Under the pieces are notes generated by a model. The model had not been told where the DNA came from and ran no database searches. It worked only from the letters and a program-made list of their open reading frames with translations. A DNA stretch of 64,000 nucleotides from Consotaella salsifontis (GTDB taxonomy: Bacteria; Pseudomonadota; Alphaproteobacteria; Rhizobiales; Rhizobiaceae): the NCBI RefSeq assembly GCF_900167365.1, contig NZ_FUXL01000004.1, forward strand, positions 62,001-126,000. Direction: 5' to 3'. This document shows positions 42,675 to 58,592 of this stretch, in pieces. The translations under genes and the position numbers were made by a program. Numbering within the stretch: the stretch's first letter is position 1; each line of letters starts with the position of its first letter.

Positions 42675-42825
42675 CTAGCAGATGCTTATCATCACGTCAA
42701 ACGCGCCCGATGCCGAATTTAAAGGCGATGAACAGGGTTAGATTTCACGCGGACGAACGCAAGAGGGCAATCTATGCAGCCACGACCGGTGGGAACCTCC
42801 CCTTCCCGCTACCGTTCGCTGCATC

Positions 42826-43713
42826 ATGAAAGTCATCCCAGGCGAGAGTTCGAGTGGTGGATTGGCGGCTCCGGAAGAGCCGTCTCCCTCCAATTTTCCG
42901 GCCACTGGTACGAAAGAGCTCCAAAACGCGTCGGCGTCGGTCCGCTTCGTCTCCTACAACATCCATTCCGGTATCGGCGCCGACAGACGCCACGACGTGA
43001 GCCGCATCGCTCGTGCCCTCGACGAATGCGACGCGGCGGTTGTTGCGCTTCAGGAAGTGGACGTCGGGCGGCGGCGCACCGACTTCGCGCATCAGGCGAA
43101 CCACATCGGGCAGGAACTGGGGATGCACGTCCACTTTCATCCCGCCCTGGAGATCGAGGACGAGGACTATGGCGACGCCATCCTGACGAAAATGCCATCC
43201 CGCCTCATGAAGGCAGGGCTTTTGCCGGGTCTGAAGCATAGACCTCGCCTGGAGCCACGTGGCGCCATCTGGGTCGAGATCGAGATTGGCGGGCAAGCGA
43301 TTCAGGTGATCAACACCCATCTCGGCCTCAACCGCCGTGAGCGAATGGCCCAGGTCGAAGAGCTTCTCGGCGAGCGCTGGCTGGGCTCGCCGCTCTGCCG
43401 CGACCCGGTCGTGCTTCTCGGCGATTTCAACGCCCTACCCCGCTCCACCGTTTTCGCCCGTCTGGCCGGAGCGTTGACGGACGCGCGCCGAACGGCCCCG
43501 GAAGGCCGGAGCCCCGCGACGTTCCCGAGCCGTTTCCCCCTGCTGCGCCTCGATCACGTCTTCACGCGCGGCGCCGTCACCGTGCGCTCGCTCGCCGTTC
43601 CGCGCACGCCGCTGACGCGCGCCGCGTCGGACCACCTGCCGCTGGTGGTCGAGCTCGAGTTCGACCCAGGCACGAAAACCTCAACGCATGTTCCCGACAG
43701 GAGGCCCGCGTGA
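42826..43713 (+). CDS. endonuclease/exonuclease/phosphatase (EEP) family protein, YbhP-like
   Basis: This 295-residue EEP-superfamily hydrolase has SYNIHSGIG, VVALQEVD (metal Glu), NTHLGLN, LLGDFNALPRS (catalytic Asp-x-Asn) and the final SDHLPLVVELEF (catalytic Asp-His). All active residues are present. The homologue YbhP is encoded in E. coli beside YbhN and ClsB, whose homologues follow here. A phosphodiester lipid or nucleotide substrate is inferred from the fold. The next gene overlaps its stop (GTGA). Confidence 0.88.
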   Translation: MKVIPGESSSGGLAAPEEPSPSNFPATGTKELQNASASVRFVSYNIHSGIGADRRHDVSRIARALDECDAAVVALQEVDVGRRRTDFAHQANHIGQELGMHVHFHPALEIEDEDYGDAILTKMPSRLMKAGLLPGLKHRPRLEPRGAIWVEIEIGGQAIQVINTHLGLNRRERMAQVEELLGERWLGSPLCRDPVVLLGDFNALPRSTVFARLAGALTDARRTAPEGRSPATFPSRFPLLRLDHVFTRGAVTVRSLAVPRTPLTRAASDHLPLVVELEFDPGTKTSTHVPDRRPA

Positions 43714-44741
43714 CCGCCGTGACTTCACAAGAGGATACGGCGCCGGCCGACGATCGTGACGATGCCGGCGACAAGAAGCGCGGTCGCAGTTGGCGCATCT
43801 GGCTCACCCGCCTCACGCTCGTCCTCGGCATCGCGCTTGCCGTCTACCTCCTCGCGCGGACACTCGGCCGCTACAGCTTCAACGAGCTCGTCGCCTCCGT
43901 CACCATTTTCCCCGCCGGCCATCTCGCCATGGCGGGCGTCTTCGCCTTCGCAAGCTACGCAACGCTGACGCTGTTCGACTTTCTCGCGGTTCGCTATGTC
44001 GGGCGACGCATTCCCTATCCAAAGGTCGCGCTGGCCTCGTTCGTCGCTCTGTCGCTCGGCCATTCCATCGGCTTTGCCGGCCTCAGCAGCGGTGCGATCC
44101 GCTATCGCTTCTATTCCAAATTTGGCCTTTCCATCGGGGATGCGGCGCGGGTCGTCCTCTTTTCCGGCATCACGGTGGGGCTGGGTCTCGCGGCGCTGGG
44201 GGGCGGCACCATCCTCATCGAGCCCGACCTCGCCGCGAAGGTCATGGGGCTGTCGCGCTCCGTCACGGTCACCATCGGTATCGCCTGCCTTGCCGGCTGC
44301 GCCATCTTCCTGCTTCTGGCGGCGACGGTGCGCCAACGCCTGACGCTCTGGCGCTGGTCGATCGAAATGCCGACATTGAAGCTGGCTGCGGCGCAGCTCG
44401 TCGTCGGCACCGTGAATTTCATGTTCGCCGCCGCCTGTCTTCATCAGGCACTGCTCGGCGTCGCGGAGATCCCCTATCTTTCGGCCGCCACGATCTATGT
44501 CCTGGCCAATGCCGGCGTGGTCATCGCGCATGTGCCGGGCGGCCTCGGCGTGATCGAGGCAGTGGTCATGTACCTCCTACCCGAGCACCAGGTGATCGGC
44601 GCGATCCTGGTCTTCCGCTTCGTCTATTTCCTCGTGCCGCTGATGATCGGCGGGATCGTCTTCCTCATCGTCGAGGCGCGGTGGCGGCTGCAGAAGCGCC
44701 AGGGAGAGCAACCCGCCCCAGCCGGCACGCGGTCCAATTGA
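43710..44741 (+). CDS. UPF0104/lysylphosphatidylglycerol-synthase-like membrane protein, YbhN-like
   Basis: This 343-residue protein has about eight transmembrane helices and no aminoacyl-transferase domain, so it is a flippase-like half of the MprF architecture. Recognisable text is YLLARTLGRYSFNEL, FAGLSSGAIRYRFYS, VIAHVPGGLGVIEAVV and FRFVYFLVPLMIGG. The GTG start at 43710 has AGGAGG upstream and overlaps the ybhP-like stop. Lipid translocation is inferred from the family. Confidence 0.87.
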   Translation: MTAVTSQEDTAPADDRDDAGDKKRGRSWRIWLTRLTLVLGIALAVYLLARTLGRYSFNELVASVTIFPAGHLAMAGVFAFASYATLTLFDFLAVRYVGRRIPYPKVALASFVALSLGHSIGFAGLSSGAIRYRFYSKFGLSIGDAARVVLFSGITVGLGLAALGGGTILIEPDLAAKVMGLSRSVTVTIGIACLAGCAIFLLLAATVRQRLTLWRWSIEMPTLKLAAAQLVVGTVNFMFAAACLHQALLGVAEIPYLSAATIYVLANAGVVIAHVPGGLGVIEAVVMYLLPEHQVIGAILVFRFVYFLVPLMIGGIVFLIVEARWRLQKRQGEQPAPAGTRSN

Positions 44742-44754
44742 GCCTCAGCGCCCA

Positions 44755-46233
44755 TCAGGGGCGCCAGGCGCGCCACCATGAGAGAGAGCCGAAGGGCGCG
44801 GCCGGATCGAGAAGGCCGGTGCCGGCGACGGGCTGCCTCGGCCCCTCGTCACTCATGGCCGGCAGCGGCTTCAGGCGGCGCTCCCCCGTATTCAGGCGCT
44901 CGACAGCGGCGAGCAACGAACCCTCGGCGGAAATCGTCGCGGCCACGGTCTCGGCATCCGTGCCGAGATGCTCGGCCAACAGCTTGTCACGGACCGCAGC
45001 GATGGCCGCGCGCCCCTTCTCGTCATCAGCCTCCACACAGACGTCGCACTCGGTGTCGAGCCCCATCGACCGATTGTTGAGGTTGGCTGAGCCGATCTTC
45101 AACGCGACATCATCCACCACGAGAACCTTCGAGTGGACGAATATCTCATGCGAGACGCCGTCACGCTCCGTCGCGGGATAGACCACGCGGAGCCGGCCGT
45201 GATGGTCGACCTCGCGCAGCGCGCGTATAAGGCGGTCCCGGTTGTTGCCCAGCGCGACCTGCTCGACCCAGCCATTCAGCGTCCGGCTCGTCGCCACCAG
45301 GATTTCCGGCCCGTCGGGGCGCTGCAGCAATTCCGAGAGGACCCGGCGCGCCAGGCGGCCGGAGAAATACTGGCTTTCGATGTAGACGAACTTCCTGGCC
45401 GCGCGGAGGGTATCCTCCAGCAGATGACCGACCTCGTGAACGGCGGGGGAAGCGCCCCTCGAAGGCGCGGTGATCGCCACGCCCGCCCGCATCTCTTTTA
45501 CATCTGCCGGGCAGTCGCTCGGCCAGCAGCACGCCGTCCCCGTCACCGGGTCCAGCGCCTCTCCTGTGGCCGAAAGCCAGCGCTCGCGGGCGACGTTGGC
45601 GACCTCGCGCGCGATCGGTCCGCTGAAAAGCATCTGACAGTCATGGACGGGATGGTAGAGCGAGCCATCGGGCCGGGCCCGGCGCGGATCGTCTGGTCGG
45701 TGCTCGCTGGTGTCCCAGCGCTCGATCGTCAGATCGATGCCGCCGACGAAGGCGAGAGCGTCGTCGATCGCCACGATCTTCTGATGGTGGCAACCGTAGA
45801 GCGGGTGATCGGTCGCCAGTCGCAGCGAAATTCTCGGATGGTCCTGCCACTCCGCGCCGAACAGGAGAGGCTTGGGGTCGCTCGGGGTGTGCACCACGGC
45901 GACGCTCCAGACCAGGATGCGCACTTCCAGATCGGGCTTCGCCTCGACCAGCGCGCGCAGGGTGCTGCCAAGCGTAGCGGCGGCAGGGTCGCCGATATCG
46001 GGACCATGGAGCGGAATCCGGCCATCGAAATCCCAGCCGACGATCAGGATGGAGCGCTCCGCGCACTTCAGACATTCGTCGAGGCGCGAAAAATAGTCCT
46101 CCCCGTCGATCAAAAGTGCGGCCTGCTCCACCCGCGACACGCCACGACAGTTGCGCGCCGGATCGAGGATAGGCTCGCTCCTTTGCAGGGAAGGCTGGGA
46201 TCGAGACTCTGTCACAACAACACGCTTCAGCAT
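44755..46233 (-). CDS. phospholipase D/cardiolipin synthase-like protein
   Basis: This 492-residue protein has two HxKxxxxD motifs: HHQKIVAIDDALAFVGGID and HSKVLVVDDVALKIGSANLN. The two catalytic lobes are complete, so it can act as a phosphatidyltransferase or phospholipase. It lacks N-terminal transmembrane helices, resembling ClsB-type cytosolic or peripheral enzymes. It is convergent with the ybhN-like gene at a 13-base gap, whereas the E. coli genes run in one direction. I start it at 46233 (MLKRVVV); a GTG at 46266 would add 11 residues. Neither has a strong ribosome site. Confidence 0.85.
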   Translation of the reverse strand: MLKRVVVTESRSQPSLQRSEPILDPARNCRGVSRVEQAALLIDGEDYFSRLDECLKCAERSILIVGWDFDGRIPLHGPDIGDPAAATLGSTLRALVEAKPDLEVRILVWSVAVVHTPSDPKPLLFGAEWQDHPRISLRLATDHPLYGCHHQKIVAIDDALAFVGGIDLTIERWDTSEHRPDDPRRARPDGSLYHPVHDCQMLFSGPIAREVANVARERWLSATGEALDPVTGTACCWPSDCPADVKEMRAGVAITAPSRGASPAVHEVGHLLEDTLRAARKFVYIESQYFSGRLARRVLSELLQRPDGPEILVATSRTLNGWVEQVALGNNRDRLIRALREVDHHGRLRVVYPATERDGVSHEIFVHSKVLVVDDVALKIGSANLNNRSMGLDTECDVCVEADDEKGRAAIAAVRDKLLAEHLGTDAETVAATISAEGSLLAAVERLNTGERRLKPLPAMSDEGPRQPVAGTGLLDPAAPFGSLSWWRAWRP

Positions 46234-46411
46234 TTCAACTTCGCCCAACACTCGCGACGCACACACACTTTCATGCCCATGACGAAGCGGGCGGCCTTTC
46301 AGCCGCCTGCCCTGTCCGCCCCAGTTATGGCGTATGCGGGCTTGGACAAGCGCGAGCTATGAGCGCCACTCAAACCCCCATCAAGTGGGCGTCAACGATG
46401 AAATACATCTT

Positions 46412-46567: not shown

Positions 46568-47677
46568 GTGGGAAACCAGTACTTGGTAACAGGTGGGCTC
46601 GGCTTCATTGGCCGGGCTCTTTGTCGTGAGTTGCTCAATGCCGGTTATCGAGTTCGTGTTCTGGACGCCCTGATCGACCAGGTTCATGGCGGCAAGGTTC
46701 CGGACCTGGATGAAAGGGTGGATTTCGTCCACGGCGATGTCCGCGACCATGAGGCGGTGCGCCGCGCCATCGACGGTGTCGAAGGTGTTTTCCATCTGGC
46801 GGCCGAGGTCGGCGTCGGCCAAAGCATGTACGAGATCGAACGCTATACCAGCGGCAACGATGTCGGCACCGCCGTACTTCTGCAGGAACTGATCGACAAG
46901 CCGGTTCGGCGCATCGTCGTGGCCTCGTCCATGAGCGTCTATGGCGAGGGGCTCTACGAAACCGATCAGGGCGCGCGCGTCTCGAACGCCCGGCGCTCCC
47001 CGTCGCGGCTGAAACAGGGCCTCTGGGAGCCCACCGCCTCGGATGGCAGCGATCTCCGCCCGATACCGACCGACGAATCGAAGCCTGTCGATCTCGCCTC
47101 GATCTATGCGCTGACGAAATACTGCCAGGAGCGCGCCGTCCAGATCTTCGGCGAAGCCTATGGCGTGGAAACAGTGGCGCTGCGGCTCTTCAACGTGTTT
47201 GGCGCGGGCCAGGCCCTGTCGAATCCCTATACCGGCGTGCTCGCCAATTTCGCCTCCCGCCTGATGAACGGCCAAAGCCCGACGATCTTCGAGGATGGTC
47301 AGCAGCGGCGCGATTTCGTCCATGTCGCGGATGTGGCGCGCGCCTTCCGGCTCGCCATGGAAAAGCCTGAAGCCGCCGGCCATACGATCAACATCGGCAG
47401 CGGCCGGGCCTACGCGATCAGCGAGGTCGCGACGCTGCTCGCCGAAGCCATGGGCGCCCCGCAGATCAAGCCGGAAATTCTCGGCAAGGCGCGAACAGGC
47501 GACATCCGAAACTGCTTTTCCGACATTTCGCGCGCCCGCCAGTTCCTCGGCTTCGAGCCGCGCTTTCTACTGGAGGATTCCCTCTCCGAGTTCGTCGCAT
47601 GGGTGAAGGCGGAAACGGCCCACGATCGCAACAGCCAGATGCGCCGCGAGCTCGAGACGCGAGGGCTCGTGGCATGA
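46568..47677 (+). CDS. NAD-dependent sugar epimerase/dehydratase
   Basis: This 369-residue extended SDR acts on a nucleotide sugar. The NAD motif is VTGGLGFIGRAL, SSMSVYGEG supplies the catalytic Ser/Thr, and YALTKYCQE the Tyr/Lys pair. A loop of about 45 residues before the YxxxK pair, with RPIPTDESKPVD, is longer than in GalE. It starts at a GTG with GGAGG 5 bases upstream and opens the glycan cluster. Its stop overlaps the fusion gene (ATGA). The exact sugar cannot be read; a dTDP/GDP/CDP-hexose or UDP-sugar are all possible. Confidence 0.88.
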   Translation: MGNQYLVTGGLGFIGRALCRELLNAGYRVRVLDALIDQVHGGKVPDLDERVDFVHGDVRDHEAVRRAIDGVEGVFHLAAEVGVGQSMYEIERYTSGNDVGTAVLLQELIDKPVRRIVVASSMSVYGEGLYETDQGARVSNARRSPSRLKQGLWEPTASDGSDLRPIPTDESKPVDLASIYALTKYCQERAVQIFGEAYGVETVALRLFNVFGAGQALSNPYTGVLANFASRLMNGQSPTIFEDGQQRRDFVHVADVARAFRLAMEKPEAAGHTINIGSGRAYAISEVATLLAEAMGAPQIKPEILGKARTGDIRNCFSDISRARQFLGFEPRFLLEDSLSEFVAWVKAETAHDRNSQMRRELETRGLVA

Positions 47678-49716
47678 GTGATCCGCGCCAGAAGGAGCCG
47701 GGTTTCGGCTTCGTTGAGTGGTTCCGCAAGGGCGAGCATCAGCGAGTCGAGCGTGCCGTGGCGGGCATGGTGGGCATGGGCGCCAAGCGGGTGCGCACGC
47801 ACCTTTCCTGGGCCGAGTACCACGAGCCCGATGGCCGCGACTGGTACGACTGGCTGATCCCGACGCTGGCGGACAAGCTGGACGTCCTGCCTTGCGTCCA
47901 CTACACGCCGCCCTCCCTGTCGCGCACCGGCCGTTCGTCCGGCGCGCCTGTCCGTCTTCTCGACTATCCCGATTTCATCGACGAGGTGCTGACGCGCTAC
48001 GGGCACCACTTCACCCATGTCGAGCTGTGGAACGAGCCGAACAACCTGCTCGATTGGGACTGGCGGATCGACCGCGATTGGAACCTCTTCTGCGAGATGA
48101 TCGGCGCCGCGGCCCATTGGACTGGCGAGCGGGGCTGGAAGGCGGTCCTTGCCGGCCCGTGCCCGTTCGACGCGGCTTGGCTCGACCTCATGGGAGAGCG
48201 CGGCGTGCTCGCCAAGGTGGCCGCCGTGGGGCTTCATGGCTTTCCCGGCACGTGGGACAGCGAGTTCGGCTCATGGAAGGGCTGGCGGCAACACTATGCC
48301 GAGGCGCGCGAAATCCTCGACCGCTATAATGGCGATGCGGAAATCTGGATCACCGAGGCCGGATACTCGACCTGGCGTAACGACGAGATCGTGCAGGTGG
48401 CGGAGTTCCTCGATCTCCTCGATCTGCCGGCTGCGCGACACTACTGGTACGGCTGGCAGGATATCGCGCCGGACGTGGCGGTGCAGGAGGGACACTACTT
48501 CGACCCTCGGCATTATCACCTCGGCGTCGTCGCCGCCGGCGGACGGACGAAGCTTCTCGGCCGCTGCCTGGCGGAGGGCGGCGTCGCCAAGGCGCGAGCC
48601 ATAGACGAATTGGCCCGCCCTGCCCTCGCCCGGCCCGCCAACGCGGTGACGATCATCGGCGGCGCCGGCTTCATCGGCTCCAATCTGGCGAAAACCTACC
48701 TCGAAGAAGGCCGGGACATCGTCATTCTCGACGATCTCAGCCGCCCCGGCGTGGAGCGAAACCTCGATTGGTTGAAGCGCGAGCATGGGGACCACGTTCA
48801 CCCGATCGTCGCCGACGTACGCGACCGCCGCGCTCTCGATGAGGCGCTCTGCGGAACCGAGGCGGTGTTTCACTTTGCCGCCCAGGTGGCGGTGACGACC
48901 AGCCTCGACGATCCGATTCAGGATTTCTCGGTCAATGCCGAGGGCACGCTCGCGGTGCTGGAGGCGGCGCGGCGCTCGGGCCGCAAGTTTCCGCTGGTCT
49001 TTTCCTCCACCAACAAGGTCTATGGCGGGCTCGACGATCTCGCCATGAGCGAGCTCGCCGATCGCTATGCTCCCGCCGATGAGGACATTCGCGCCCACGG
49101 CGTCGGCGAGACGCGCAGCCTTGATTTCTGCACGCCTTATGGATGCTCCAAGGGCGTGGCCGACCAATACGTTCTCGACTACGCCAAGTCCTACGGCCTG
49201 CCGACGGCGGTGCTGAGGATGAGCTGCATCTATGGTCCGCGCCAGTTCGGCACGGAGGACCAGGGCTGGGTGGCGCATTTCCTGATCAAGGCGCTGCGCG
49301 GCGAGCCGATCACCATCTTCGGCAACGGCAAGCAGGTTCGCGATATCCTCCACGTGGCCGACGCCGTCGCCGCCTATCGGACCGTTTCGGCCAATATCGG
49401 CAAGGTTTCGGGCCAGGCCTTCAACCTCGGCGGCGGGCCGGCCAACGCTGTCAGCCTCAAGCTGGTCCTAGAAGAGATCGCCCGGCTGACCGGCCGAAAG
49501 GTGGCGCTGGAACATGGCGACTGGCGCCAGGGCGACCAGTTCTATTTCGTTGCCGATACCCGAAAGCTTGCTGCCGCCCTGGGCTGGCGCGCCGAAATCG
49601 GATGGCGCGATGGAATGCGCGACCTGACGGAGTGGCTGCGGAGCGGCGAAGGCCCGGTGCCGACGGCCAAAACTGTCTCGGAAGAGGCGGCGCCCGTCCT
49701 TCGAGCCATCGCATGA
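47674..49716 (+). CDS. fusion of a clan-A glycoside hydrolase and an NAD-dependent sugar epimerase
   Basis: This 680-residue two-domain protein has no signal peptide. Residues 1-310 form a TIM-barrel glycosidase of the GH39/GH5 style, with acid/base E121 in ELWNEPNN and nucleophile E228 in WITEAGYS. Residues 320-660 are an extended SDR with IIGGAGFIGSNL (from 326), SSTNKVYGG and YGCSKGVAD (Y489/K493). The epimerase half resembles CDP-paratose 2-epimerase-like enzymes. Both active sites look intact. Joining a glycoside hydrolase to a nucleotide-sugar enzyme is unusual and suggests trimming and recycling, or a sugar-binding role. Overlaps tie it to the first epimerase gene. Confidence 0.85.
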   Translation: MSDPRQKEPGFGFVEWFRKGEHQRVERAVAGMVGMGAKRVRTHLSWAEYHEPDGRDWYDWLIPTLADKLDVLPCVHYTPPSLSRTGRSSGAPVRLLDYPDFIDEVLTRYGHHFTHVELWNEPNNLLDWDWRIDRDWNLFCEMIGAAAHWTGERGWKAVLAGPCPFDAAWLDLMGERGVLAKVAAVGLHGFPGTWDSEFGSWKGWRQHYAEAREILDRYNGDAEIWITEAGYSTWRNDEIVQVAEFLDLLDLPAARHYWYGWQDIAPDVAVQEGHYFDPRHYHLGVVAAGGRTKLLGRCLAEGGVAKARAIDELARPALARPANAVTIIGGAGFIGSNLAKTYLEEGRDIVILDDLSRPGVERNLDWLKREHGDHVHPIVADVRDRRALDEALCGTEAVFHFAAQVAVTTSLDDPIQDFSVNAEGTLAVLEAARRSGRKFPLVFSSTNKVYGGLDDLAMSELADRYAPADEDIRAHGVGETRSLDFCTPYGCSKGVADQYVLDYAKSYGLPTAVLRMSCIYGPRQFGTEDQGWVAHFLIKALRGEPITIFGNGKQVRDILHVADAVAAYRTVSANIGKVSGQAFNLGGGPANAVSLKLVLEEIARLTGRKVALEHGDWRQGDQFYFVADTRKLAAALGWRAEIGWRDGMRDLTEWLRSGEGPVPTAKTVSEEAAPVLRAIA

Positions 49717-49757
49717 GCGACGATCGCAAAAAGCGGTGGGGCCTCGTCGTCCGATGA
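49713..49757 (+). CDS. possible 14-codon coupling ORF (MSDDRKKRWGLVVR)
   Basis: An ATG overlaps the upstream stop (ATGA at 49713), and the reading frame ends in a TGA that overlaps the next ATG (49754) in the same way. The peptide is basic and has no recognisable family. It may simply keep ribosomes moving to the glycosyltransferase start or be an accident of composition. Confidence 0.3.
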   Translation: MSDDRKKRWGLVVR

Positions 49758-50872
49758 CCGCGCGACGCATTCTGATGACCGCCGACGCCGTGGGCGGCGT
49801 CTGGCAGTACTGCCTGGACGCAGCCCGTGCTCTAAGCGCGTCGGGCGTCGAGATCGTGCTGGCCGTTCTCGGCCCCGCCCCGGACGCGGCGCAGCGCGCC
49901 GAAGCCATGGCCCTGCGCAACCTTTCGCTCGTCCATCTCGACGCGCCGCTGGACTGGCTCGTCGAGGATGAGGCGGAGCTTGATCCTCTCGCCCGTCAGC
50001 TCGACGGTCTTGCGGGCCGAACGGGCGTGGACCTTATCCATCTCAACGCGCCGTCACAGGTTGTGGGTCTCGGCCAATCGCGCCCGGTCGTCGCCGTCTC
50101 CCATTCCTGTGTGATCACCTGGTGGCGCGCCATGCGCGATGGTCCCTGGCCCGCGGAATGGGACTGGAAGCACCGGCGCAATCGGGCGGGTTTCAACGCG
50201 GCCGATGTGGTGCTCGCGCCAAGCCGCAGCCACGCGGAAGCCCTCAAGGCGGCCTACGGCGAAATCGCCGGTCTGCGCGTCGTCCACAACGCGGTTCGCC
50301 CCGCGCCCGAAAGCTCAAGCGGCAAGGAACCATTCGCCTTTGCCGCCGGGCGCTGGTGGGACGAGAGCAAAAACGGACATTCGCTGGACGCGGCGGCCGC
50401 CGACTGTGCTTGGCCCGTCGTCATGGCCGGAAACACCGAAGGACCGAACGGCCAGGCGCTGGATCTTCGCCATGCCGAGGCGCCGGGAGTTCTGTCGAGC
50501 GATGCGGTGCGCGAAATGATGGCGCGCGCCGCCATCTTCGTCTCGCCCTCGCTTTACGAACCCTTCGGTCTGGCGCTGCTGGAAGCGGCCCACGCGAAGT
50601 GCGCCCTCGTCGTCAGCGACATTGCCATCTTCCGCGAGGTTTGGGCGGACGCCGCGCTCTTCGTCGATGCTCGCGATGCCGGCGCGATGGCGAAGGCCCT
50701 CAACCGCCTCATCGCCGATCCGGGCGAAAGACAACGCCTCGGCGAGAAGGCGGCCGAACGCGCCGCCGCGTTTTCGCTGGAACGGCAGTGTCGCGGGCTT
50801 CTCGACGCCTATCGTGCCGCGACGCAGCGTCATGAGCAGCGGGCACGGCCCGCCGTCGCCCTGGTGGAGTAG
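49754..50872 (+). CDS. glycosyltransferase family 4-like
   Basis: This 372-residue GT-B enzyme has an N-terminal MTADAVGGVWQYCLDAARAL domain and a C-terminal nucleotide-sugar domain. The latter has FVSPSLYEPFGLALLEAA, the GT4 ExxxxxxxE motif. A conserved His lies in VAVSHSCVITWW. It has no membrane segment, so it is soluble or peripheral. It starts at 49754, with ARRILMTADAVGG matching the usual GT4 beginning. It is followed three bases later by the next transferase gene. Confidence 0.9.
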   Translation: MTARRILMTADAVGGVWQYCLDAARALSASGVEIVLAVLGPAPDAAQRAEAMALRNLSLVHLDAPLDWLVEDEAELDPLARQLDGLAGRTGVDLIHLNAPSQVVGLGQSRPVVAVSHSCVITWWRAMRDGPWPAEWDWKHRRNRAGFNAADVVLAPSRSHAEALKAAYGEIAGLRVVHNAVRPAPESSSGKEPFAFAAGRWWDESKNGHSLDAAAADCAWPVVMAGNTEGPNGQALDLRHAEAPGVLSSDAVREMMARAAIFVSPSLYEPFGLALLEAAHAKCALVVSDIAIFREVWADAALFVDARDAGAMAKALNRLIADPGERQRLGEKAAERAAAFSLERQCRGLLDAYRAATQRHEQRARPAVALVE

Positions 50873-50874
50873 CC

Positions 50875-52005
50875 ATGCATTTTCTGTTCTACACCCACTC
50901 CCTCGTCTCCGACTGGAACCACGGCAACGCGCATTTTCTGCGCGGCGTCATGCGAAACCTCCACGAGCGCGGCGATTCCGCCCTGGCGCTGGAGCCGGCC
51001 GGCGGCTGGAGCCGCGACAATCTCGCCAAGGACCAGGGCGTCGCCGTGGAGGCGCGCTTCTTCCGCGCGTTCCCCACCTTGCGCTCGGAAACCTACGACG
51101 CCGATTTCGACCACGAGGCGGCGCTGGCCGAGGCGGATGTCGTCATCGTCCACGAATGGACCGACCCGGCGCTGATCGCGCGCATCGGTAGGGCACGGGC
51201 CAACGGCGGAACGTTCACCCTTCTCTTTCACGACACCCACCATCGCGCGGTGTCCCAGGAAGGAGAGATCGCCGAGATGCGGCTTGCCGACTATGACGGC
51301 ATCCTCGCCTTTGGCGAGACCCTGCGCCAGCGCTATCTCAAGGCGGGGTGGGGCCGAACGGTCTTCACCTGGCACGAGGCGGCCGACACGCCCCTCTTTA
51401 GGCCGCTGCCGGAGGTGGAGAAGACCGGAGAGCTGATCTGGATCGGCAACTGGGGCGACGGCGAGCGCACGCGCGAACTCCAAACCTTCCTGATGGAACC
51501 GGCGCGCCGACTTGGGCTCGACGCCACGGTGCGCGGCGTGCGCTATCCCAAGGAGGCGCTCGCCGAACTGGAGCGGGCCGGCATCCACTATGGCGGCTGG
51601 ATTGCCAATGCGGACGTTCCGGCCGCGTTCGCCGCCCACCGCGCGACGGTGCATGTGCCGCGCCGACCCTACGTCGAGGCCCTGCCGGGCATTCCGACGA
51701 TCCGCGTCTTCGAGGCGCTGGCCTGCGGCATTCCATTGGTTTCGGCGCCGTGGCGCGACGAGGAGGCGCTGTTCAGGCCCGGCAGGGATTTCCTTTTCGC
51801 CGAGAACGGCGAGGAGATGGCCCGGCACCTGCGCGCCATCCTCTCCGACCCGGACCTTGCTAACTCGCTCGCCCGATCCGGCCTCGAGACGATCCTGTCG
51901 CGTCACACCTGCGCCCACCGCGTCGACCAGCTCTTTGAAATCCTCTCGGAGATCGGAACGGATAGGGTCCGCCGCCAGATCGCCACACAGGAGGCCGCGC
52001 AATGA
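50875..52005 (+). CDS. glycosyltransferase, GT-B fold (CgeB-like)
   Basis: This 376-residue soluble protein starts MHFLFYTHSLVSDWNHGNAH. The second half has IPTIRVFEALACGIPLVSAPW and RPGRDFLF, the C-terminal pattern of GT4/CgeB-type transferases. The donor-binding Glu is in RVFEALACG. It is the first of three similar transferases that overlap by ATGA, perhaps produced by duplication. Each presumably adds one sugar. Confidence 0.86.
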   Translation: MHFLFYTHSLVSDWNHGNAHFLRGVMRNLHERGDSALALEPAGGWSRDNLAKDQGVAVEARFFRAFPTLRSETYDADFDHEAALAEADVVIVHEWTDPALIARIGRARANGGTFTLLFHDTHHRAVSQEGEIAEMRLADYDGILAFGETLRQRYLKAGWGRTVFTWHEAADTPLFRPLPEVEKTGELIWIGNWGDGERTRELQTFLMEPARRLGLDATVRGVRYPKEALAELERAGIHYGGWIANADVPAAFAAHRATVHVPRRPYVEALPGIPTIRVFEALACGIPLVSAPWRDEEALFRPGRDFLFAENGEEMARHLRAILSDPDLANSLARSGLETILSRHTCAHRVDQLFEILSEIGTDRVRRQIATQEAAQ

Positions 52006-53096
52006 GGATCGCCTTTTACGGCTCCAGCCTGCTCTCGTCCTATTGGAACGGCGCCGCTACCTATTATCGCGGCCTGCTTCGCGCTCTCGCCGGCCACGGG
52101 CATCAGATCACCTTTTACGAGCCGGACGTCTACGACCGGCAGAAGAACCGCGATATCGAGCCGCCGGACTGGTGCCGCGTCGTCGTCTATGACGGCACGA
52201 TCGACGCCCTGAAGACGGTGTGCGCCGAAGCCGGCGACTACGACGTCGTGGTCAAGGCAAGCGGCGTCGGCTTCATGGATGACGATCTCCTGCGCGGGGT
52301 GCTCGCCCACGCGCGGCGCGATGCCGTCACCGTGTTCTGGGATGTCGACGCGCCGGCGACCCTCGCCGAAATCCGCGCGGCGCCGGATCACGCGGTTCGC
52401 GCCGCGCTCGATGAGCTCGACCTCGTCCTCACCTATGGCGGCGGCGACCCGGTCATCGATGCCTACCGGGCAATCGGCGCCGCCGAGTGCATCCCGATCT
52501 ACAACGCGCTCGATCCCTCGACCCATTTCCCGGTGTCGCCCGATCCGCGCTTTGCCGCCGATCTCGGCTTCCTAGGCAACCGGCTTCCCGATCGAGAGGC
52601 GCGGGTGGAGGAGTTCTTCCTGCGGTCCGCCACCGAGGTTCCCAGCTCGACCTTCCTTCTCGGCGGATCGGGCTGGGCCGACAAGCCGATGCCCGGCAAC
52701 GTATCCTATGTCGGCCATGTCGGCACGCGCGATCACAACGCCTTCAACTGCACGCCCAAGGCGGTGATCAACATCAACCGGGCGAGCATGGCCGAGATCG
52801 GCTTTTCGCCGCCGACCCGCGTCTTCGAGGCCGCCGGCGCCGGTGCGTGCCTGATCACCGATCACTGGACAGGAGTCGAGCTCTTCCTGAAGCCCGACGA
52901 TGAGGTTCTCGTAGCGCGCGACGGCCAGGATGTCGCGTCCATCATGCGGGAGCTGACGCCCGAGCGGGCGGGCGAAATCGGCAGGGCCGCTCTCGCCCGC
53001 GTCCTTGCCGAACACACCTATGAGAAACGCGCCGAGGAGGCGGACTGCATCCTGAGCAACGCTTCGGCGGCCAAGCGCGCGGAGGCGGCGGAATGA
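52002..53096 (+). CDS. glycosyltransferase, GT-B fold (CgeB-like)
   Basis: This 364-residue relative of the flanking genes starts MRIAFYGSSLLSSYWNGAATYYRGL. It has the C-terminal pattern PPTRVFEAAGAGACLITDHW and ELFLKPDDEVL, typical of CgeB-type proteins. The segment DLGFLGNRLPDREARVEEFF resembles the linker of spore-maturation CgeB. There is no signal or transmembrane helix. It overlaps both neighbours by ATGA. Confidence 0.87.
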   Translation: MRIAFYGSSLLSSYWNGAATYYRGLLRALAGHGHQITFYEPDVYDRQKNRDIEPPDWCRVVVYDGTIDALKTVCAEAGDYDVVVKASGVGFMDDDLLRGVLAHARRDAVTVFWDVDAPATLAEIRAAPDHAVRAALDELDLVLTYGGGDPVIDAYRAIGAAECIPIYNALDPSTHFPVSPDPRFAADLGFLGNRLPDREARVEEFFLRSATEVPSSTFLLGGSGWADKPMPGNVSYVGHVGTRDHNAFNCTPKAVININRASMAEIGFSPPTRVFEAAGAGACLITDHWTGVELFLKPDDEVLVARDGQDVASIMRELTPERAGEIGRAALARVLAEHTYEKRAEEADCILSNASAAKRAEAAE

Positions 53097-54199
53097 GCAA
53101 GCGCCCCCTCGACATCGTCATTCTCGGCCTCTCCCTCGCCTCCTCCTGGGGCAACGGCCACGCGACGACGTTCCGTTCGCTTCTGCGCGGCGTGAAGCGC
53201 CTCGGCCACAACGTCCTGTTCCTGGAGCGCGAGGTTCCCTGGTATGCCGGGGGCAACCGCGATCTGCCCGATCCCGACTTCTGCGATCTCCAGTTTTATC
53301 AAGGCCTGGACGACCTCGAAGACCGCTTCGCCGAGCGCATTCGCGGTGCCGACGCGGTCATCGTCGGCTCCTACGTGCCGGACGGCGTCGCGGCGATCGA
53401 TCAGGTGCTGGCGCTCGCCAACGGAACCGTCGGCTTCTACGACATCGATACGCCGGTGACGCTTGCCAAGCTGCGGCGAGGCGACGAGGAATATCTCTCG
53501 GTGCGCCAAATCCCGCGCTTCGACGTCTATTTCTCCTTCAGCGGCGGGCGGACGCTCGATCGCCTCCAGAGTGAATACGGGGCGCGGCGCGCCGAGGCGC
53601 TGTTCTGTTCGGTGGAGGCGGAGCGCTACCGCCCCACAGGAGAACCGCCGCGCTGGGACCTCGGATATCTCGGCACCTATAGCGACGACCGGCAGCCGAC
53701 GCTGGAAAAGCTGCTGCTCGAGCCAGCGCGGCGTCTGCCGGAGTGTCGTTTCGTGGTCGCCGGGCCGCAATATCCCGACACCATCGACTGGCCGGACAAT
53801 GTCGAGCGCATCGAACATCTGCCGCCCGCCGAGCACGCCTCCTTCTATAGCCGTCAGCGCTACACGCTGAACGTCACCCGCGCCGACATGATCGCCGCCG
53901 GCTGGTCGCCCAGCGTGCGCCTGTTCGAGGCCGCCGCCTGCGGCACGCCGATCATCAGCGACGCCTGGGACGGCCTGGACAAGCTCCTGCCGGGCGGCGT
54001 CGCCATCGCCGAGAACGCGGACGATGTCGTCGCTCTCCTAAGGGACAGGACGGACGAGGAGCGCGGATCGATGGCGGCCAAAGCCAAGGCCACGGTTCTT
54101 GCCGATCACACGGGCGACGCGCGCGCCCTCGAGTTCATCTCCGCCTTGCGACAGGCCGCAGCCTCCCCTGCCGCCGAACGCAAGTCGGCCCTTGCCTGA
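53093..54199 (+). CDS. glycosyltransferase, GT-B fold (CgeB-like)
   Basis: This 368-residue protein starts MSKRPLDIVILGLSLASSWGNGHATTFRSLL and carries SPSVRLFEAAACGTPIISDAW. The mid-segment GYLGTYSDDRQPTLEKLLLEPAR matches CgeB-type domains. It is the last gene before a 164-base gap with a terminator-like hairpin, so the first transcription unit of the glycan cluster may end here. Confidence 0.87.
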   Translation: MSKRPLDIVILGLSLASSWGNGHATTFRSLLRGVKRLGHNVLFLEREVPWYAGGNRDLPDPDFCDLQFYQGLDDLEDRFAERIRGADAVIVGSYVPDGVAAIDQVLALANGTVGFYDIDTPVTLAKLRRGDEEYLSVRQIPRFDVYFSFSGGRTLDRLQSEYGARRAEALFCSVEAERYRPTGEPPRWDLGYLGTYSDDRQPTLEKLLLEPARRLPECRFVVAGPQYPDTIDWPDNVERIEHLPPAEHASFYSRQRYTLNVTRADMIAAGWSPSVRLFEAAACGTPIISDAWDGLDKLLPGGVAIAENADDVVALLRDRTDEERGSMAAKAKATVLADHTGDARALEFISALRQAAASPAAERKSALA

Positions 54200-54249
54200 A
54201 GTCCTTTAGCAACCGCGCCGGCTCGCGGCCGGCTTCATCGAAGTTCGGA

Positions 54250-54274
54250 GGAACGAACCAAAACCCTCGCTGTT
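54250..54274 (+). promoter_or_regulatory. possible EcfG (general stress response) promoter of the uxs operon
   Basis: GGAAC at 54250-54254 is followed by 16 bases and then TGTT at 54271-54274. The alphaproteobacterial EcfG consensus is GGAAC-N16/17-CGTT, so three of four -10 bases match. It lies about 110 bases before the uxs start. The match is short and unconfirmed. Confidence 0.35.
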
Positions 54275-54314
54275 TTCCATAACAGAGCACCTCCCTCACC
54301 AGATCATTCTGCTG

Positions 54315-54342
54315 CACCGCCGGATTCGGCCGGTGAATTTTT
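54315..54342 (+). terminator. terminator-like hairpin directly upstream of uxs
   Basis: CACCGCCG (54315-54322) pairs with CGG-c-CGGTG (54327-54335) around a GATT loop with one bulge. AA and five T follow (54336-54342). The uxs ribosome site AGGAG begins only 8 bases later. It can end transcripts from the glycosyltransferase unit or act as an attenuator for uxs. Confidence 0.65.
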
Positions 54343-54363
54343 CGCTTTCAGGAGTCAACGCAC

Positions 54364-55406
<1,043 letters not shown>

Positions 55407-55410
<4 letters not shown>

Positions 55411-56153
55411 GCGGGACGTCAACCGCGTTGCGGCGTGAAATCGAGGCGCTTGGGCCCTGGTTTCACAACATCCGCATCGGCGATGTCGAAACCGCTCCGG
55501 ACCATTTCCTGGGCGACTATCCCGCCTTCAAATGGAACGGGTTCAAGCATGTGGTGCCGGCGGATCTCGAGGGGCGCAGTGTCCTCGATATCGGCTGCAA
55601 CGCCGGGTTCTATTCGATAGAGATGAAGCGGCGAAACGCCGGCCGCGTCGTCGCGATCGATTCCGACCCGCACTATTTGCGGCAGGCGGAGTTTGCCAGC
55701 CGCCACGCCGGTGTCGATATCGAGCTCCGCCAGATGTCGGTCTACGACGTGGGCAAGCTGGGCGAGACCTTCGACCTCGTGATCTTTATGGGCGTGCTCT
55801 ATCACCTGCGCCATCCGCTGCTGGCGCTCGACCTTCTCTATGAGCATGTCGTGGGTGACCGGATGTTGTTTCAGTGCATGCAGCGGGGCTCGGCGCAGTC
55901 CATGACGCCGGAGGAGAACCACTCCTTCGACGAGTGGAAGATCTTCGACGATCACGATTGGCCGAAGCTTCACTTCATCGAGGAGCGCTACGCCGACGAT
56001 CCGACCAACTGGTTCGTGCCCAACAAGGCGGGCGCAGAGGCCATGTTGCGTAGCGCCGGTTTCGTCATCGAGGCCAACCCGGAGCGCGAAGTCTATCTTC
56101 TGCGGCGCGAAGAACGGCACTACGCGGCCGAGCCGCCGCCCTCCATCCGCTGA
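55407..56153 (+). CDS. SAM-dependent methyltransferase (resembles TIGR04290)
   Basis: This 248-residue class I methyltransferase has motif I VLDIGCNAGFYSIEM, an acidic residue binding the ribose in AIDSDPHYL and motif IV DLVIFMGVLYHLRHPL. From memory it belongs to the family TIGR04290, known from similar glycosyltransferase clusters but without a characterised reaction. It probably O-methylates a sugar. It starts at GTG 55407 overlapping the uxs stop (GTGA). The C-terminal part has WFVPNKAGAEAML, shared by relatives. Confidence 0.88.
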
Positions 56154-56192
56154 ACCGTGGACTGTATGAACATCGACACGCCGAGGAGTACC

Positions 56193-57182
56193 ATGACAGA
56201 TAATCCGTCTCGCTCACCCGCGGCCATGGAGGCGGTGGTCGTCACCGGTCCGGGCAGGATCGCGATCGAGACGCACCCCGTTCCAACGCCGGGCGCCGGT
56301 CAGGTCGTCATCGAACTGGAAGGCTGCGGCGTCTGCGCCTCCAATCTCGTTCCGTGGTCGGGGCCGGAATGGATGCAGTTCCCGACCGAGCCGGGCGGGC
56401 TCGGCCATGAGGGATGGGGAACGATCCGCGCCCTGGGCGAAGGCGTGGAAGGCCTGTCCGTGGGCCAGCGCGTTGCCGCCCTCTCCTATCATGCCTATGC
56501 CGAATACGACGTTGCCGAGGCCGACGCGGTGGTGCCGCTGCCTGAGGCGCTTGAGGGCAAGCCCTTTCCCGCCGAGCCCCTGGCCTGCGCCATCAACGCC
56601 TTCAAGCGCTGCGGCATCGAGGCCGGGCAGACGGTCGCGATCATCGGCATCGGCTTCATGGGCGCGCTGCTGACACAGCTCGCCAGCGCCGCCGGCGCCC
56701 GCGTCATCGCAATATCCCGCCGGCCGTTCGCGCTCGAAATGGCTCGCCGGATGGGCGCTGCCGAGACGATCGTCATGGATGACCATTGGAGGATCATCGA
56801 GGAGGTCAAGACGCTGACTGACGGGCGGCTCTGCGACTGCGTCATCGAGGCGGTGGGTGCCCAATGGCCGCTCGACCTCGCGGCGGAGCTGACACGCGAG
56901 CGCGGCCGCCTCGTCATCGCCGGCTACCACCAGGACGGTCCGCGCCAGGTCAACATGCAGCTGTGGAACTGGCGGGGGCTTGATGTCGTCAACGCCCACG
57001 AGCGGGAACAGGCCGTCTATATCCAGGGCATGCGCGATGCGGTGGAGGCGGTTGCCTCCGGCCGCCTCGACCCCGCCCCGCTCTTCACCCACACCTTTCC
57101 CCTGTCGCGCCTGGACGATGCGCTGAACATGGCGCGCGACCGCCCCGATGGTTTCATGAAAGCGCTGGTGCTGTGCCAATGA
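56193..57182 (+). CDS. zinc-dependent alcohol dehydrogenase-like oxidoreductase
   Basis: This 329-residue MDR enzyme has GCGVCASNLVPW (first catalytic Cys), GGLGHEGWG (catalytic His and Glu), a Rossmann motif IIGIGFMGALL and the usual C-terminal ending. The structural-zinc cysteine cluster is missing, as in many small MDR proteins. GAGGAG is 4-5 bases before the ATG. Placed between the methyltransferase and a Gfo/Idh/MocA oxidoreductase, it probably oxidises or reduces a sugar-derived intermediate. Confidence 0.87.
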   Translation: MTDNPSRSPAAMEAVVVTGPGRIAIETHPVPTPGAGQVVIELEGCGVCASNLVPWSGPEWMQFPTEPGGLGHEGWGTIRALGEGVEGLSVGQRVAALSYHAYAEYDVAEADAVVPLPEALEGKPFPAEPLACAINAFKRCGIEAGQTVAIIGIGFMGALLTQLASAAGARVIAISRRPFALEMARRMGAAETIVMDDHWRIIEEVKTLTDGRLCDCVIEAVGAQWPLDLAAELTRERGRLVIAGYHQDGPRQVNMQLWNWRGLDVVNAHEREQAVYIQGMRDAVEAVASGRLDPAPLFTHTFPLSRLDDALNMARDRPDGFMKALVLCQ

Positions 57183-58204
57183 CGCTCACCTCAATGTCCG
57201 CATCCCTCGCCTCCTCCCATGGCCGGCCGCGCGTCGGCTTTCTCGGCGTCGGATGGATCGGCCGCCACAGGCTCGAGGCCATGGCGGCGACGGGAGCGAT
57301 CGACGTCGCGGCGATCGCCGACCCCTCGTCGGCCATGGTGGAGGAAGCGCTCGCCGTCGCGCCCGGCGCTCAGGTGGGACAGTCCCTCGACGACCTTCTC
57401 GCCATGGATCTCGACGGCGTCGTCATCGCGACGCCGAGCGCGCTTCATGCCGAACAGTCGATCGCCGCGCTGGAGCAAGGCCTCGCCGTCTTCTGCCAGA
57501 AGCCGCTCGGACGCACCCACCAGGAGGTCGCAGCGGTGATCGAAGCGGCGCGCGCCGCCGACCGCCTCCTCGGCGTGGATCTCTCCTATCGCCAGACGGC
57601 GGGAATGGAGAAGATCCGGTCGCTCGTTCAGGGCGGAGAACTGGGCTCGATCTTCGCCGTCGATCTCGTCTTCCACAACGCCTATGGCCCCGACAAGGAC
57701 TGGTTCTACGACAAGGCCCGCTCGGGCGGCGGCTGCGTCATGGATCTCGGCGTCCATCTCGTGGATCTGGCGCTTTGGACCCTGGGCTTTCCCGCCGTCA
57801 GCCAAGTCGACGGCCGCCTCTTCCGGCAGGGAGAGCGCATCGCCAGCGATGCCGACGAAGTGGAGGATTTTGCCCTCGCCACCATCGAGCTCGGCAATGG
57901 CGCCGTGGTTCGCCTTGCCTGCTCCTGGCGCCTCCAGGCCGGATGCGACGCCGTCATCGGCGCAAGCTTCCACGGGACAGGCGGCGGCGCAGAGTTCCGC
58001 AACGTCAACGGTTCGTTCTACGATTTCGTCGCCGAGCGCTTCCGCGGCACGGCGAGAGAGCCGCTTGCCGCGCCGCCGGACGAATGGGGCGGCCGCGCCG
58101 CCTCGGCCTGGGCCGAACGTCTCGCCCAAAGTGCCGCCTTCGACCCTGCCTGCGAGACGCTGGAGCCGGTGGCCAGCGTACTCGACGCGATTTATGGGCG
58201 TTGA
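57179..58204 (+). CDS. Gfo/Idh/MocA-family oxidoreductase
   Basis: This 341-residue protein has the N-terminal Rossmann motif GFLGVGWIGRHRLEAM and the family dinucleotide/substrate motif CQKPLGRT, with the catalytic Lys of EKP-type sites. A C-terminal substrate domain has GGGCVMDLGVHLVDLALW. Such enzymes oxidise, reduce or epimerise sugars or cyclitols. It overlaps the zinc dehydrogenase stop by ATGA, so the two probably act in sequence. Confidence 0.9.
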   Translation: MTLTSMSASLASSHGRPRVGFLGVGWIGRHRLEAMAATGAIDVAAIADPSSAMVEEALAVAPGAQVGQSLDDLLAMDLDGVVIATPSALHAEQSIAALEQGLAVFCQKPLGRTHQEVAAVIEAARAADRLLGVDLSYRQTAGMEKIRSLVQGGELGSIFAVDLVFHNAYGPDKDWFYDKARSGGGCVMDLGVHLVDLALWTLGFPAVSQVDGRLFRQGERIASDADEVEDFALATIELGNGAVVRLACSWRLQAGCDAVIGASFHGTGGGAEFRNVNGSFYDFVAERFRGTAREPLAAPPDEWGGRAASAWAERLAQSAAFDPACETLEPVASVLDAIYGR

Positions 58205-58253
58205 GGGGCGGCGGCCGTCAAGCGCGGGTTATTCTCTTGGACGCGACCGGACT

Positions 58254-58277
58254 GCCGGAACTGATGCCGGTTCCGGC
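58254..58277 (+). repeat. perfect 8-bp inverted repeat (GCCGGAAC/GTTCCGGC)
   Basis: The arms at 58254-58261 and 58270-58277 are separated by 8 bases in the gap between the Gfo/Idh/MocA gene and the small protein. No T-run follows, so it is an operator or an mRNA stem and not a clear terminator. Confidence 0.5.
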
Positions 58278-58325
58278 GACTTGCCCCTCCATCACTCCAA
58301 ATCCATCGGACGAAGGGGAGCCAGC

Positions 58326-58592
58326 ATGGCCGAAGCGACGACCGATCACGACACGATCCGCTCCTGGGCGGAAAAGAGCGGCGGCAAGCCGGCCGCCGTC
58401 AAGGAGACCCATCAGGGCGGCGACGTCGGCATCATCCGCATCATGTTTCCCGATGCGCCCAATTCCGAGCATGAATGGCTCGTCGAGATTTCCTGGGACG
58501 AGTTCTTCCGCGAGTTCGAGGAGCGCAAGCTGCAGCTCCTCTACGAGAAGGACAGCCTGTTCTCCAAGCTGGTCAGCCGCGACAACGGCTGA
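58326..58592 (+). CDS. small conserved protein of unknown function (88 aa)
   Basis: This 88-residue acidic cytosolic protein has a strong ribosome site (GGGGAG). Conserved-looking text is TDHDTIRSWAEKSGG, GIIRIMFPDA and EISWDEFFREFEERKLQLLY. I recall close relatives mislabelled in databases as 1,4-alpha-glucan branching enzyme; there is no catalytic domain here. It is followed by a terminator, so it ends the uxs transcription unit or has its own. Confidence 0.75.
   Translation: MAEATTDHDTIRSWAEKSGGKPAAVKETHQGGDVGIIRIMFPDAPNSEHEWLVEISWDEFFREFEERKLQLLYEKDSLFSKLVSRDNG

What the first reader, a model, noticed from the sequence alone, without database searches (positions are those of the whole stretch)
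46568..58592. Uncharacterised glycan cluster without transporter or polymerase
Eleven same-strand genes encode two sugar epimerase activities, a glycosidase-epimerase fusion, four GT-B glycosyltransferases, UDP-xylose synthase, a methyltransferase of the TIGR04290 type and two oxidoreductases. A small conserved protein ends the set. I see no flippase, polymerase, priming transferase or exporter. Every product looks cytosolic. This fits a soluble, methylated, xylose-containing oligosaccharide or a modification of a cytosolic target, and not capsule, EPS or O-antigen. Similar sets occur in other proteobacteria (from memory), but no product is known.
Basis: partly seen in the sequence, partly recalled or inferred. 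Interest (0 to 1): 0.8.

Follow-up and report, generated by a model that had tools for sequence, protein, structure and literature searches.

The report
Uncharacterised transporter-less glycan biosynthesis cluster
This stretch carries a conserved set of genes that probably builds a small, xylose-containing, methylated sugar chain inside the cell, possibly as stress protection; the same set sits in well-studied laboratory rhizobia, so its unknown product can be looked for directly.

Summary
Ten packed + strand genes (46568-58204) encode a 4-epimerase-like SDR, a glycosidase/2-epimerase fusion, four GT-B enzymes, a UDP-xylose synthase, a TIGR04290 methyltransferase, a Zn-ADH and a Gfo/Idh/MocA protein. 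The small ORF at 58326-58592 is a loose neighbour. Co-occurrence is not chance: among 398 genomes of the phylum, the g5 glycosyltransferase and TIGR04290 occur in the same 14. Gene order is conserved. None of 840 ORFs called inside the cluster spans of 81 loci has four or more predicted membrane segments.

New: there are two variants. In the window's variant the glycosidase is fused to a CDP-tyvelose-2-epimerase-like domain. The other has a free glycosidase that is a circular permutation of the fused one, plus inositol-phosphate synthase (8 of 8 against 0 of 12 genomes). EcfG-type stress promoters are enriched upstream of many copies, though not of the window's first gene. The set is also on Sinorhizobium meliloti 1021 pSymB and Rhizobium etli CFN42 p42b.

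Best reading: a cytosolic, stress-regulated, methylated, pentose-containing oligosaccharide, on a cyclitol acceptor in one variant. The product is unproven.

The parts
46568..47677 (+). g1: extended SDR, NDP-sugar 4-epimerase-like (start 46568 or 46631)
   Evidence: Pfam Epimerase 2.5e-53; best PDB match a UDP-glucose 4-epimerase, 147 bits, substrate not resolved
47674..49716 (+). g2: fusion of a GH-A-type glycosidase domain (47674-48639) and a CDP-tyvelose-2-epimerase-like domain (48640-49716); the longest ORF starts 47599
49736..50872 (+). g3: GT4-type glycosyltransferase (GT-B)
   Evidence: Pfam Glycos_transf_1 8e-19 and Glyco_transf_4 8.7e-16
50875..52005 (+). g4: GT-B glycosyltransferase, PF13524
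   Evidence: 8e-39
52002..53096 (+). g5: GT-B glycosyltransferase, PF13524; marker used for co-occurrence
   Evidence: 1.6e-35
53093..54199 (+). g6: GT-B glycosyltransferase, PF13524
   Evidence: 2e-36
54250..54274 (+). EcfG-type promoter-like motif GGAAC-N16-TGTT, 114 bases before g7
   Evidence: among 57 g7 upstream regions only this and one other have a relaxed match, so it is not a conserved site
54364..55410 (+). g7: UDP-glucuronate decarboxylase (UDP-xylose synthase)
   Evidence: 360 bits
55428..56153 (+). g8: TIGR04290 family methyltransferase (longest ORF starts 55320)
   Evidence: 380 bits, cut-off 300; only weak PDB matches, best a CmoB-type tRNA enzyme, 46 bits
56157..57182 (+). g9: zinc-binding alcohol/polyol dehydrogenase
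   Evidence: Pfam ADH_zinc_N 1.2e-19; best PDB match a ketose reductase, 104 bits
57173..58204 (+). g10: Gfo/Idh/MocA oxidoreductase
   Evidence: Pfam, best PDB match 90 bits; 94 bits to the IolG model, against 420 for the genome's IolG on another contig
58326..58592 (+). g11: small conserved protein, loosely associated neighbour
   Evidence: no Pfam hit; 15 of 81 loci, 12 of them on the other strand
42792..42816 (+). exact EcfG-type motif before the neighbouring gene at 42826, outside the cluster
   Evidence: a single match is not above chance for the whole window (mean 1.51 expected)

Best explanation
The cluster is a co-inherited cytosolic pathway for a small hetero-oligosaccharide. Assigned by strong homology: g7 makes UDP-xylose from UDP-glucuronate (an NDP-sugar dehydrogenase that could supply it is elsewhere in the genome); the C-terminal part of g2 is a sugar-nucleotide 2-epimerase; g1 is 4-epimerase-like; g3-g6 are four GT-B transferases; g8 is a SAM methyltransferase. 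Inferred: g9 and g10 oxidise and re-reduce a polyol or cyclitol acceptor, g3-g6 add up to four sugars including xylose or its epimer, g8 caps the chain by methylation, and the glycosidase trims or transglycosylates the chain in the cytosol. In the second variant an inositol-phosphate synthase and a histidine phosphatase would supply inositol as acceptor. EcfG-type promoters upstream of many copies suggest induction by the general stress response, so the product is most likely a stress protectant kept in the cell.
For: g5 and TIGR04290 in the same 14 of 398 genomes; conserved order; same architecture in R. etli. Decarboxylase 360 bits, 2-epimerase 277 bits, glycosidase fold and both glutamates. 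0 of 840 ORFs with four or more membrane segments. Inositol synthase in 8 of 8 genomes with the permuted glycosidase and 0 of 12 with the fused one. EcfG motif before g1 in 11 of 44 and before the inositol synthase in 16 of 68; control motifs of the same letters average 0.29 and 0.62, maxima 3 and 7. A sigma-factor family with a PhyR-sigma2-type domain (Pfam on one member) neighbours 32 of 81 loci. NDP-sugar dehydrogenase and NepR in the own genome.
Against: No metabolite or expression data. The window's genome has no PF01658 inositol synthase, so an inositol acceptor there would have to be imported, or the acceptor is another one. The window's own g1 has no motif upstream, and 26 of 44 g1 upstream regions lack even the relaxed motif. 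The strict motif also occurs on the reverse strand of 7 of 44 g1 and 6 of 68 inositol-synthase upstream regions, so some sites may serve divergent neighbours. G009 has g1-g7 without TIGR04290 and G089 has a truncated set. Export or priming genes may lie elsewhere in the genome; pyruvyl-transferase-like genes, more usual for surface polysaccharides, neighbour 12 of 81 loci.
Confidence: 0.45

Rival explanations
1. The cluster builds a glycan on a membrane lipid (glycolipid, inositol lipid or LPS-core decoration) on the cytosolic face; flipping and export use genes elsewhere in the genome.
For: GT-B enzymes are often peripheral membrane proteins (general knowledge). Polysaccharide pyruvyl transferase (PF04230) and FrhB-type genes neighbour 12 of 81 loci each, and a weak GT9-like family 13 of 81.
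Against: No integral membrane protein, lipid-phosphate sugar transferase or lipid synthase recurs inside the cluster.
Confidence: 0.25
2. The oligosaccharide decorates a cytosolic target, such as a protein or a redox cofactor, in the manner recalled for mycofactocin glycans.
For: All products look cytosolic; two dehydrogenases lie beside the cluster; g8 has a very weak match (20 bits, cut-off 200) to the mycofactocin oligosaccharide methyltransferase model.
Against: No precursor peptide, cofactor gene or dedicated carrier recurs in the loci (recurrent families only).
Confidence: 0.15
3. An ordinary surface polysaccharide locus whose transport genes have been separated from it.
For: Enzyme content alone resembles surface polysaccharide loci; S. 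meliloti is recalled to have a separate UDP-xylose locus for an arabinose-containing polysaccharide.
Against: Transport genes would have to be absent from the locus in every conserved version held: 0 of 840 ORFs, in records titled as several phyla.
Confidence: 0.12

Closest known systems
Rhizobium etli CFN42 p42b RHE_RS22255-RHE_RS22300 (annotated; no function found in the papers searched)
   Same: g1-g8 in the same order with the fused g2, g9 and g10 divergent beside it, and relatives of the window's downstream SDR and Zn-ADH (65% and 82%) nearby
   Different: g9/g10 lie on the other strand and on the other side; a nucleotidyltransferase and a metallophosphoesterase lie close by
Sinorhizobium meliloti pSymB locus (strains 1021 and R14)
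   Same: g1, a free 2-epimerase, g3-g8, g9 and g10
   Different: inositol variant: inositol synthase, histidine phosphatase and the permuted glycosidase (annotated as beta-xylosidase in R14) instead of the fusion
CDP-tyvelose 2-epimerase (TyvE; Thermodesulfatator enzyme with CDP-glucose activity)
   Same: 277 bits; TNK and YxxxK invariant in 33 of 33 aligned rows
   Different: TyvE Tyr203, Trp210 and Met85 positions are Glu, His and Val in 33 of 33 rows, so nucleotide or sugar may differ; fused to a glycosidase here
PslG / GH39-type glycosidases
   Same: barrel fold (E 5e-12, TM 0.67 by query length) and two conserved glutamates
   Different: about 15% identity; no membrane or signal segment detected; fused to an epimerase
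UDP-xylose locus of the S. meliloti arabinose-containing polysaccharide (recalled, not tested)
   Same: uses a UDP-xylose synthase
   Different: recalled as a surface polysaccharide made by other genes

Membership tests
Capsule, EPS or O-antigen biosynthesis locus | flippase/polymerase or exporter, and priming transferase, in the locus | tested here: not met
   0 of 840 ORFs inside the cluster spans of 81 loci have four or more membrane segments, by a simple hydropathy scan; unlinked genes not tested
UDP-glucuronate decarboxylase (UDP-xylose synthase) | sequence clearly closest to characterised decarboxylases, SDR catalytic motif kept | tested here: met
   360 bits against 126 for the next enzyme; alignment shows the conserved STSEVYGDP and CYDEGKR stretches
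UDP-glucuronate decarboxylase (UDP-xylose synthase) | UDP-xylose formed in vitro | not testable with these tools
   needs an enzyme assay
CDP-tyvelose 2-epimerase (TyvE) | catalytic TNK and YxxxK | tested here: met
   33 of 33 rows, the window's sequence counted twice, 32 loci
CDP-tyvelose 2-epimerase (TyvE) | CDP- and sugar-contacting residues Tyr203, Trp207, Trp210, Phe211, and the VAM segment | tested here: not met
   Trp207 and Phe211 kept, but Tyr203, Trp210 and Met85 replaced by Glu, His and Val in 33 of 33 rows; filed as TyvE-like, not as TyvE
Retaining clan GH-A glycosidase (GH39/PslG-like) | (beta/alpha)8 barrel with two conserved glutamates | tested here: met
   fold; E121 and E228 in 14 of 14
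Retaining clan GH-A glycosidase (GH39/PslG-like) | glycosidase activity | not testable with these tools
   needs an enzyme assay
TIGR04290 methyltransferase | score over the curated cut-off | tested here: met
   380 against 300 bits
EcfG (general stress response) regulon | EcfG-type promoter upstream of the first gene | tested here: inconclusive
   11 of 44 strict and 18 of 44 relaxed across copies, but none before g1 in the window; one near-match before g7
Cytosolic compatible solute or protectant pathway | soluble product that accumulates under stress | not testable with these tools
   needs metabolite analysis

The most novel reading that the evidence does not exclude
A widespread and undescribed class of stress-induced cytosolic protectant: a methylated, xylose-containing oligosaccharide on an inositol or other cyclitol core, made by a locus found in Alphaproteobacteria and in records titled as Acidobacteriota, Myxococcota, Pedobacter and Dyadobacter, with a glycosidase that exists in two circularly permuted forms matched to two acceptor chemistries.
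Probability: 0.3. Interest if true: 0.85.

Novelty: new variant of a known kind. Interest (0 to 1): 0.66.

Why it matters
A conserved pathway without a known product is carried by the model rhizobia S. meliloti 1021 and R. etli CFN42, where gene removal and metabolite work are routine. If the product is a stress protectant it would add a chemical class beside trehalose to the alphaproteobacterial general stress response. The pair of normal and circularly permuted glycosidases in equivalent loci would be a natural experiment on how a catalytic barrel tolerates permutation.

Tried and rejected
Chance clustering was rejected. An exporter inside conserved versions was sought and not found; a sugar ABC transporter set next to g8 in S. 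meliloti R14 lies outside the core, and I did not test its conservation. An inositol product in the window's own strain is weakened by the absence of PF01658 in its genome (98.46% complete). Exact EcfG matches in the whole window are not above chance (1 found, 1.51 expected). Foldseek of the permuted protein gave no convincing chain (best E 1.8e-4; TM by query length at most 0.47 in the 50 rows shown), which is what a sequential aligner would be expected to give.

Papers. 'TIGR04290' is in no held paper. Gene-content searches gave nothing relevant. Six S. meliloti locus tags, recalled and never confirmed because the held NC_003078 record has no gene annotation, gave none. Stress-regulon papers were searched by terms only: PMC6599016, PMC7083833, PMC3892343 (passages), PMC8877191, PMC2912261, PMC10315480 (passages), PMC4167512, PMC6180224, PMC3616915 (no term found). 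None names this locus in the passages seen; supplements were not available. PMC6599016 lists EcfG-dependent glycosyltransferase and glycosidase genes in Sphingomonas melonis; whether they are homologous was not tested. PMC7851689 and PMC13098431: passages.

Rows and limits. The 80 relatives are the best 80 of 242 and lean towards Mesorhizobium. Held stretches reach at most 10 kb each side, so only 6 of 81 loci show g1, g3, g4, g5/g6, g7 and g8 together and 13 of 81 show none of g1, g2/free epimerase, g3, g4, g7. Gene calls in the loci come from my own hexamer script. Some loci are one contig taken twice (L035 and L130) and many are close relatives, so motif and order counts are not independent. 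G094 (TIGR04290 and inositol synthase, no g5 and no glycosidase match; small contig) is outside the 8-against-12 comparison.
Full report
What is there. The + strand from 46568 to 58204 holds ten genes, several overlapping by four bases. The small ORF at 58326-58592 has no Pfam hit, is in 15 of 81 loci and lies on the strand opposite to g8 in 12 of the 15; I treat it as a neighbour.

Sharper functions. g7 matches UDP-glucuronic acid decarboxylase 1 with 360 bits, the next enzyme 126. The fusion's C-terminal domain matches CDP-tyvelose 2-epimerase with 277 bits, the next enzyme type 122. Its TNK and YxxxK are invariant in 33 of 33 aligned rows (the window's sequence counted twice, 32 loci), while the positions of TyvE Tyr203, Trp210 and Met85 are Glu, His and Val in all 33; the roles of the TyvE residues come from passages of PMC13098431 and PMC7851689. 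It is therefore a TyvE-like 2-epimerase whose nucleotide or sugar may differ. The N-terminal domain is modelled as a barrel (mean pLDDT 84.6) nearest to PslG and a GH39 enzyme, with the glutamates of WNEP and WxTE invariant in 14 of 14. g1 is 4-epimerase-like without a clear substrate.

It is a real unit. Among 151 genomes (the own one and 150 relatives), TIGR04290 above cut-off is in 19 and g5 at E 1e-30 or better in 19, 18 shared. Without the own genome the table is 17, 1, 1, 131, Fisher p 3e-20. In 398 genomes drawn from the phylum, both (E 1e-60 or better) are in the same 14, the own one included, and the glycosidase profile (E 1e-20 or better) is in those 14 plus one. The genomes are related to each other, so the p values overstate independence. 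Order is kept: g3-g4 adjacent in 40 of 41 loci that have both, g5/g6-g7 in 40 of 40, g1-epimerase in 21 of 21. Of 11 fetched fused-type regions, 9 hold all of g1-g8; in one of the 9 (L124) g8 precedes g7 and a radical SAM gene is inserted; L128 lacks g8 and L129 is truncated. Against the set as indivisible: G009 has no TIGR04290 and G089 a truncated set.

Two variants. In the window's variant the glycosidase is fused to the epimerase. In the other, a free protein of about 310 residues follows g8 directly in 74 of 77 loci that have both. This free protein is a circular permutation. In one pair the fused domain's residues 118-293 match its first half (E 8e-23) and residues 9-110 its second half (E 2e-13). 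The swapped two-block order is present in 77 of the 78 loci with any glycosidase match; the unpermuted form is in L035, L080 and L098. Rotating the sequence improves the alignment clearly in 76 of 77 members. The start residues M-I-E are nearly invariant and both glutamates invariant in 27 aligned sequences. Its model (mean pLDDT 86.0) is a barrel that begins at the strand before WNEPN. L080 and L098 (Dyadobacter) carry both forms, so the forms are not strictly exclusive. L034 and L069 showed neither in the held stretch. Inositol-phosphate synthase (PF01658) is in 8 of 8 genomes with the free form and 0 of 12 with the fused form among the 151, p 8e-6; by the tool's labels the 20 are in 20 genera. 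Its association with TIGR04290 itself is weaker (9 of 18 against 14 of 132, own genome excluded, p 2e-4).

No export machinery. A hydropathy scan found no membrane segment in the window's eleven proteins, and 0 of 840 ORFs between the outermost core genes of 81 loci (window included) have four or more. The scan is simple, flanks are limited to 10 kb, and unlinked genes are not covered.

Stress link. The EcfG motif GGAAC-N15-18-CGTT lies within 400 bases upstream of g1 in 11 of 44 and of the inositol synthase in 16 of 68; control motifs of the same letters average 0.29 and 0.62 (maxima 3 and 7). Allowing TGTT gives 18 of 44 and 18 of 68. Other genes of the set show none or few (g8 0 of 93, free glycosidase 0 of 78, g3 0 of 34, g7 1 of 57, g4 4 of 59 with control maximum 9), as expected inside operons. 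The strict motif is also on the reverse strand of 7 and 6 of these regions, so some sites may serve divergent neighbours. The consensus is in passages of PMC7083833, PMC6599016 and PMC3892343, and TGTT as a natural -10 box in PMC7083833. A sigma-factor family (PF04542, PF08281 and PhyR_sigma2 on one member) neighbours 32 of 81 loci. The own genome has NepR. Against: the window has no such motif before g1; it has GGAAC-N16-TGTT before g7 and an exact match at 42792 before a neighbouring gene, which alone is not above chance.

Model organisms. tblastn finds g5 in 148 plasmid records (66 Sinorhizobium, 48 Rhizobium) and g8 in 132 (66 and 35). R. etli CFN42 p42b carries the fused architecture with g9/g10 divergent and relatives of the window's downstream SDR (65%) and Zn-ADH (82%) nearby. 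S. meliloti 1021 pSymB carries the inositol variant; in strain R14 it is annotated as inositol-3-phosphate synthase, histidine phosphatase, beta-xylosidase (the permuted protein), Gfo/Idh/MocA, epimerases, glycosyltransferases and TIGR04290.

Mechanism. The own genome has one NDP-sugar dehydrogenase above cut-off, consistent with UDP-glucuronate for g7. From there: UDP-xylose by g7, further donors by g1 and the 2-epimerase, up to four additions by g3-g6, methylation by g8. The pair g9/g10 most plausibly works on a polyol or cyclitol; g10 is only a distant relative of the genome's own IolG (94 against 420 bits). The role of the glycosidase (trimming or transglycosylation) is a guess. Order of steps, acceptor, linkages and product are not shown.

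Novelty. NCBI has a family for g8 and public genomes hold the genes, so the members are not new. Searches aimed at the locus or its product found no description; the library is open-licence only and misses most subscription papers. The other four searches were about single enzymes, permuted glycosidases and the promoter. The two variants, the permuted glycosidase, the inositol link and the promoter enrichment are, as far as I could search, not described.

Noticed in passing
L087:10746-11678 and the same family in 76 further loci: A glycosidase-like protein that is a circular permutation of the window's fused glycosidase domain, starting at the strand before WNEPN, both glutamates kept.
   Followed up: yes
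window 42792-46266: Endonuclease/exonuclease/phosphatase-family, LPG-synthase-TM-like and PLD-family genes beside the cluster, with an exact EcfG-type motif before the first.
   Followed up: partly
L109, L068, L082, L101 (Mesorhizobium loci): A recurrent side module near the inositol variant: GT4, SAM methyltransferase, acetyltransferase PF13480 and PIG-L deacetylase (40, 39, 36 and 15 of 81 loci).
   Followed up: no
L090:4467-6200 (-): A 577-residue protein without any Pfam hit, from a family in 26 of 81 loci and divergent from the inositol synthase in S. meliloti pSymB.
   Followed up: no
L081:15176-16465; also L124: A radical SAM/B12-binding protein between the 2-epimerase and g3 in some loci; the family is in 14 of 81.
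   Followed up: no
L129 (G089): A cluster that breaks off inside g4, with no g5 match and no TIGR04290 above cut-off in the genome; apparently a decaying copy.
   Followed up: partly
L141:15548-22305: Sugar ABC transporter genes, a DUF2961 protein and a LacI regulator next to g8 in S. meliloti R14.
   Followed up: no
L051:11688-12989 and L080:14150-15250: FrhB-type (PF04432) and polysaccharide pyruvyl transferase (PF04230) genes paired beside 12 of 81 copies, also in S. meliloti pSymB.
   Followed up: partly
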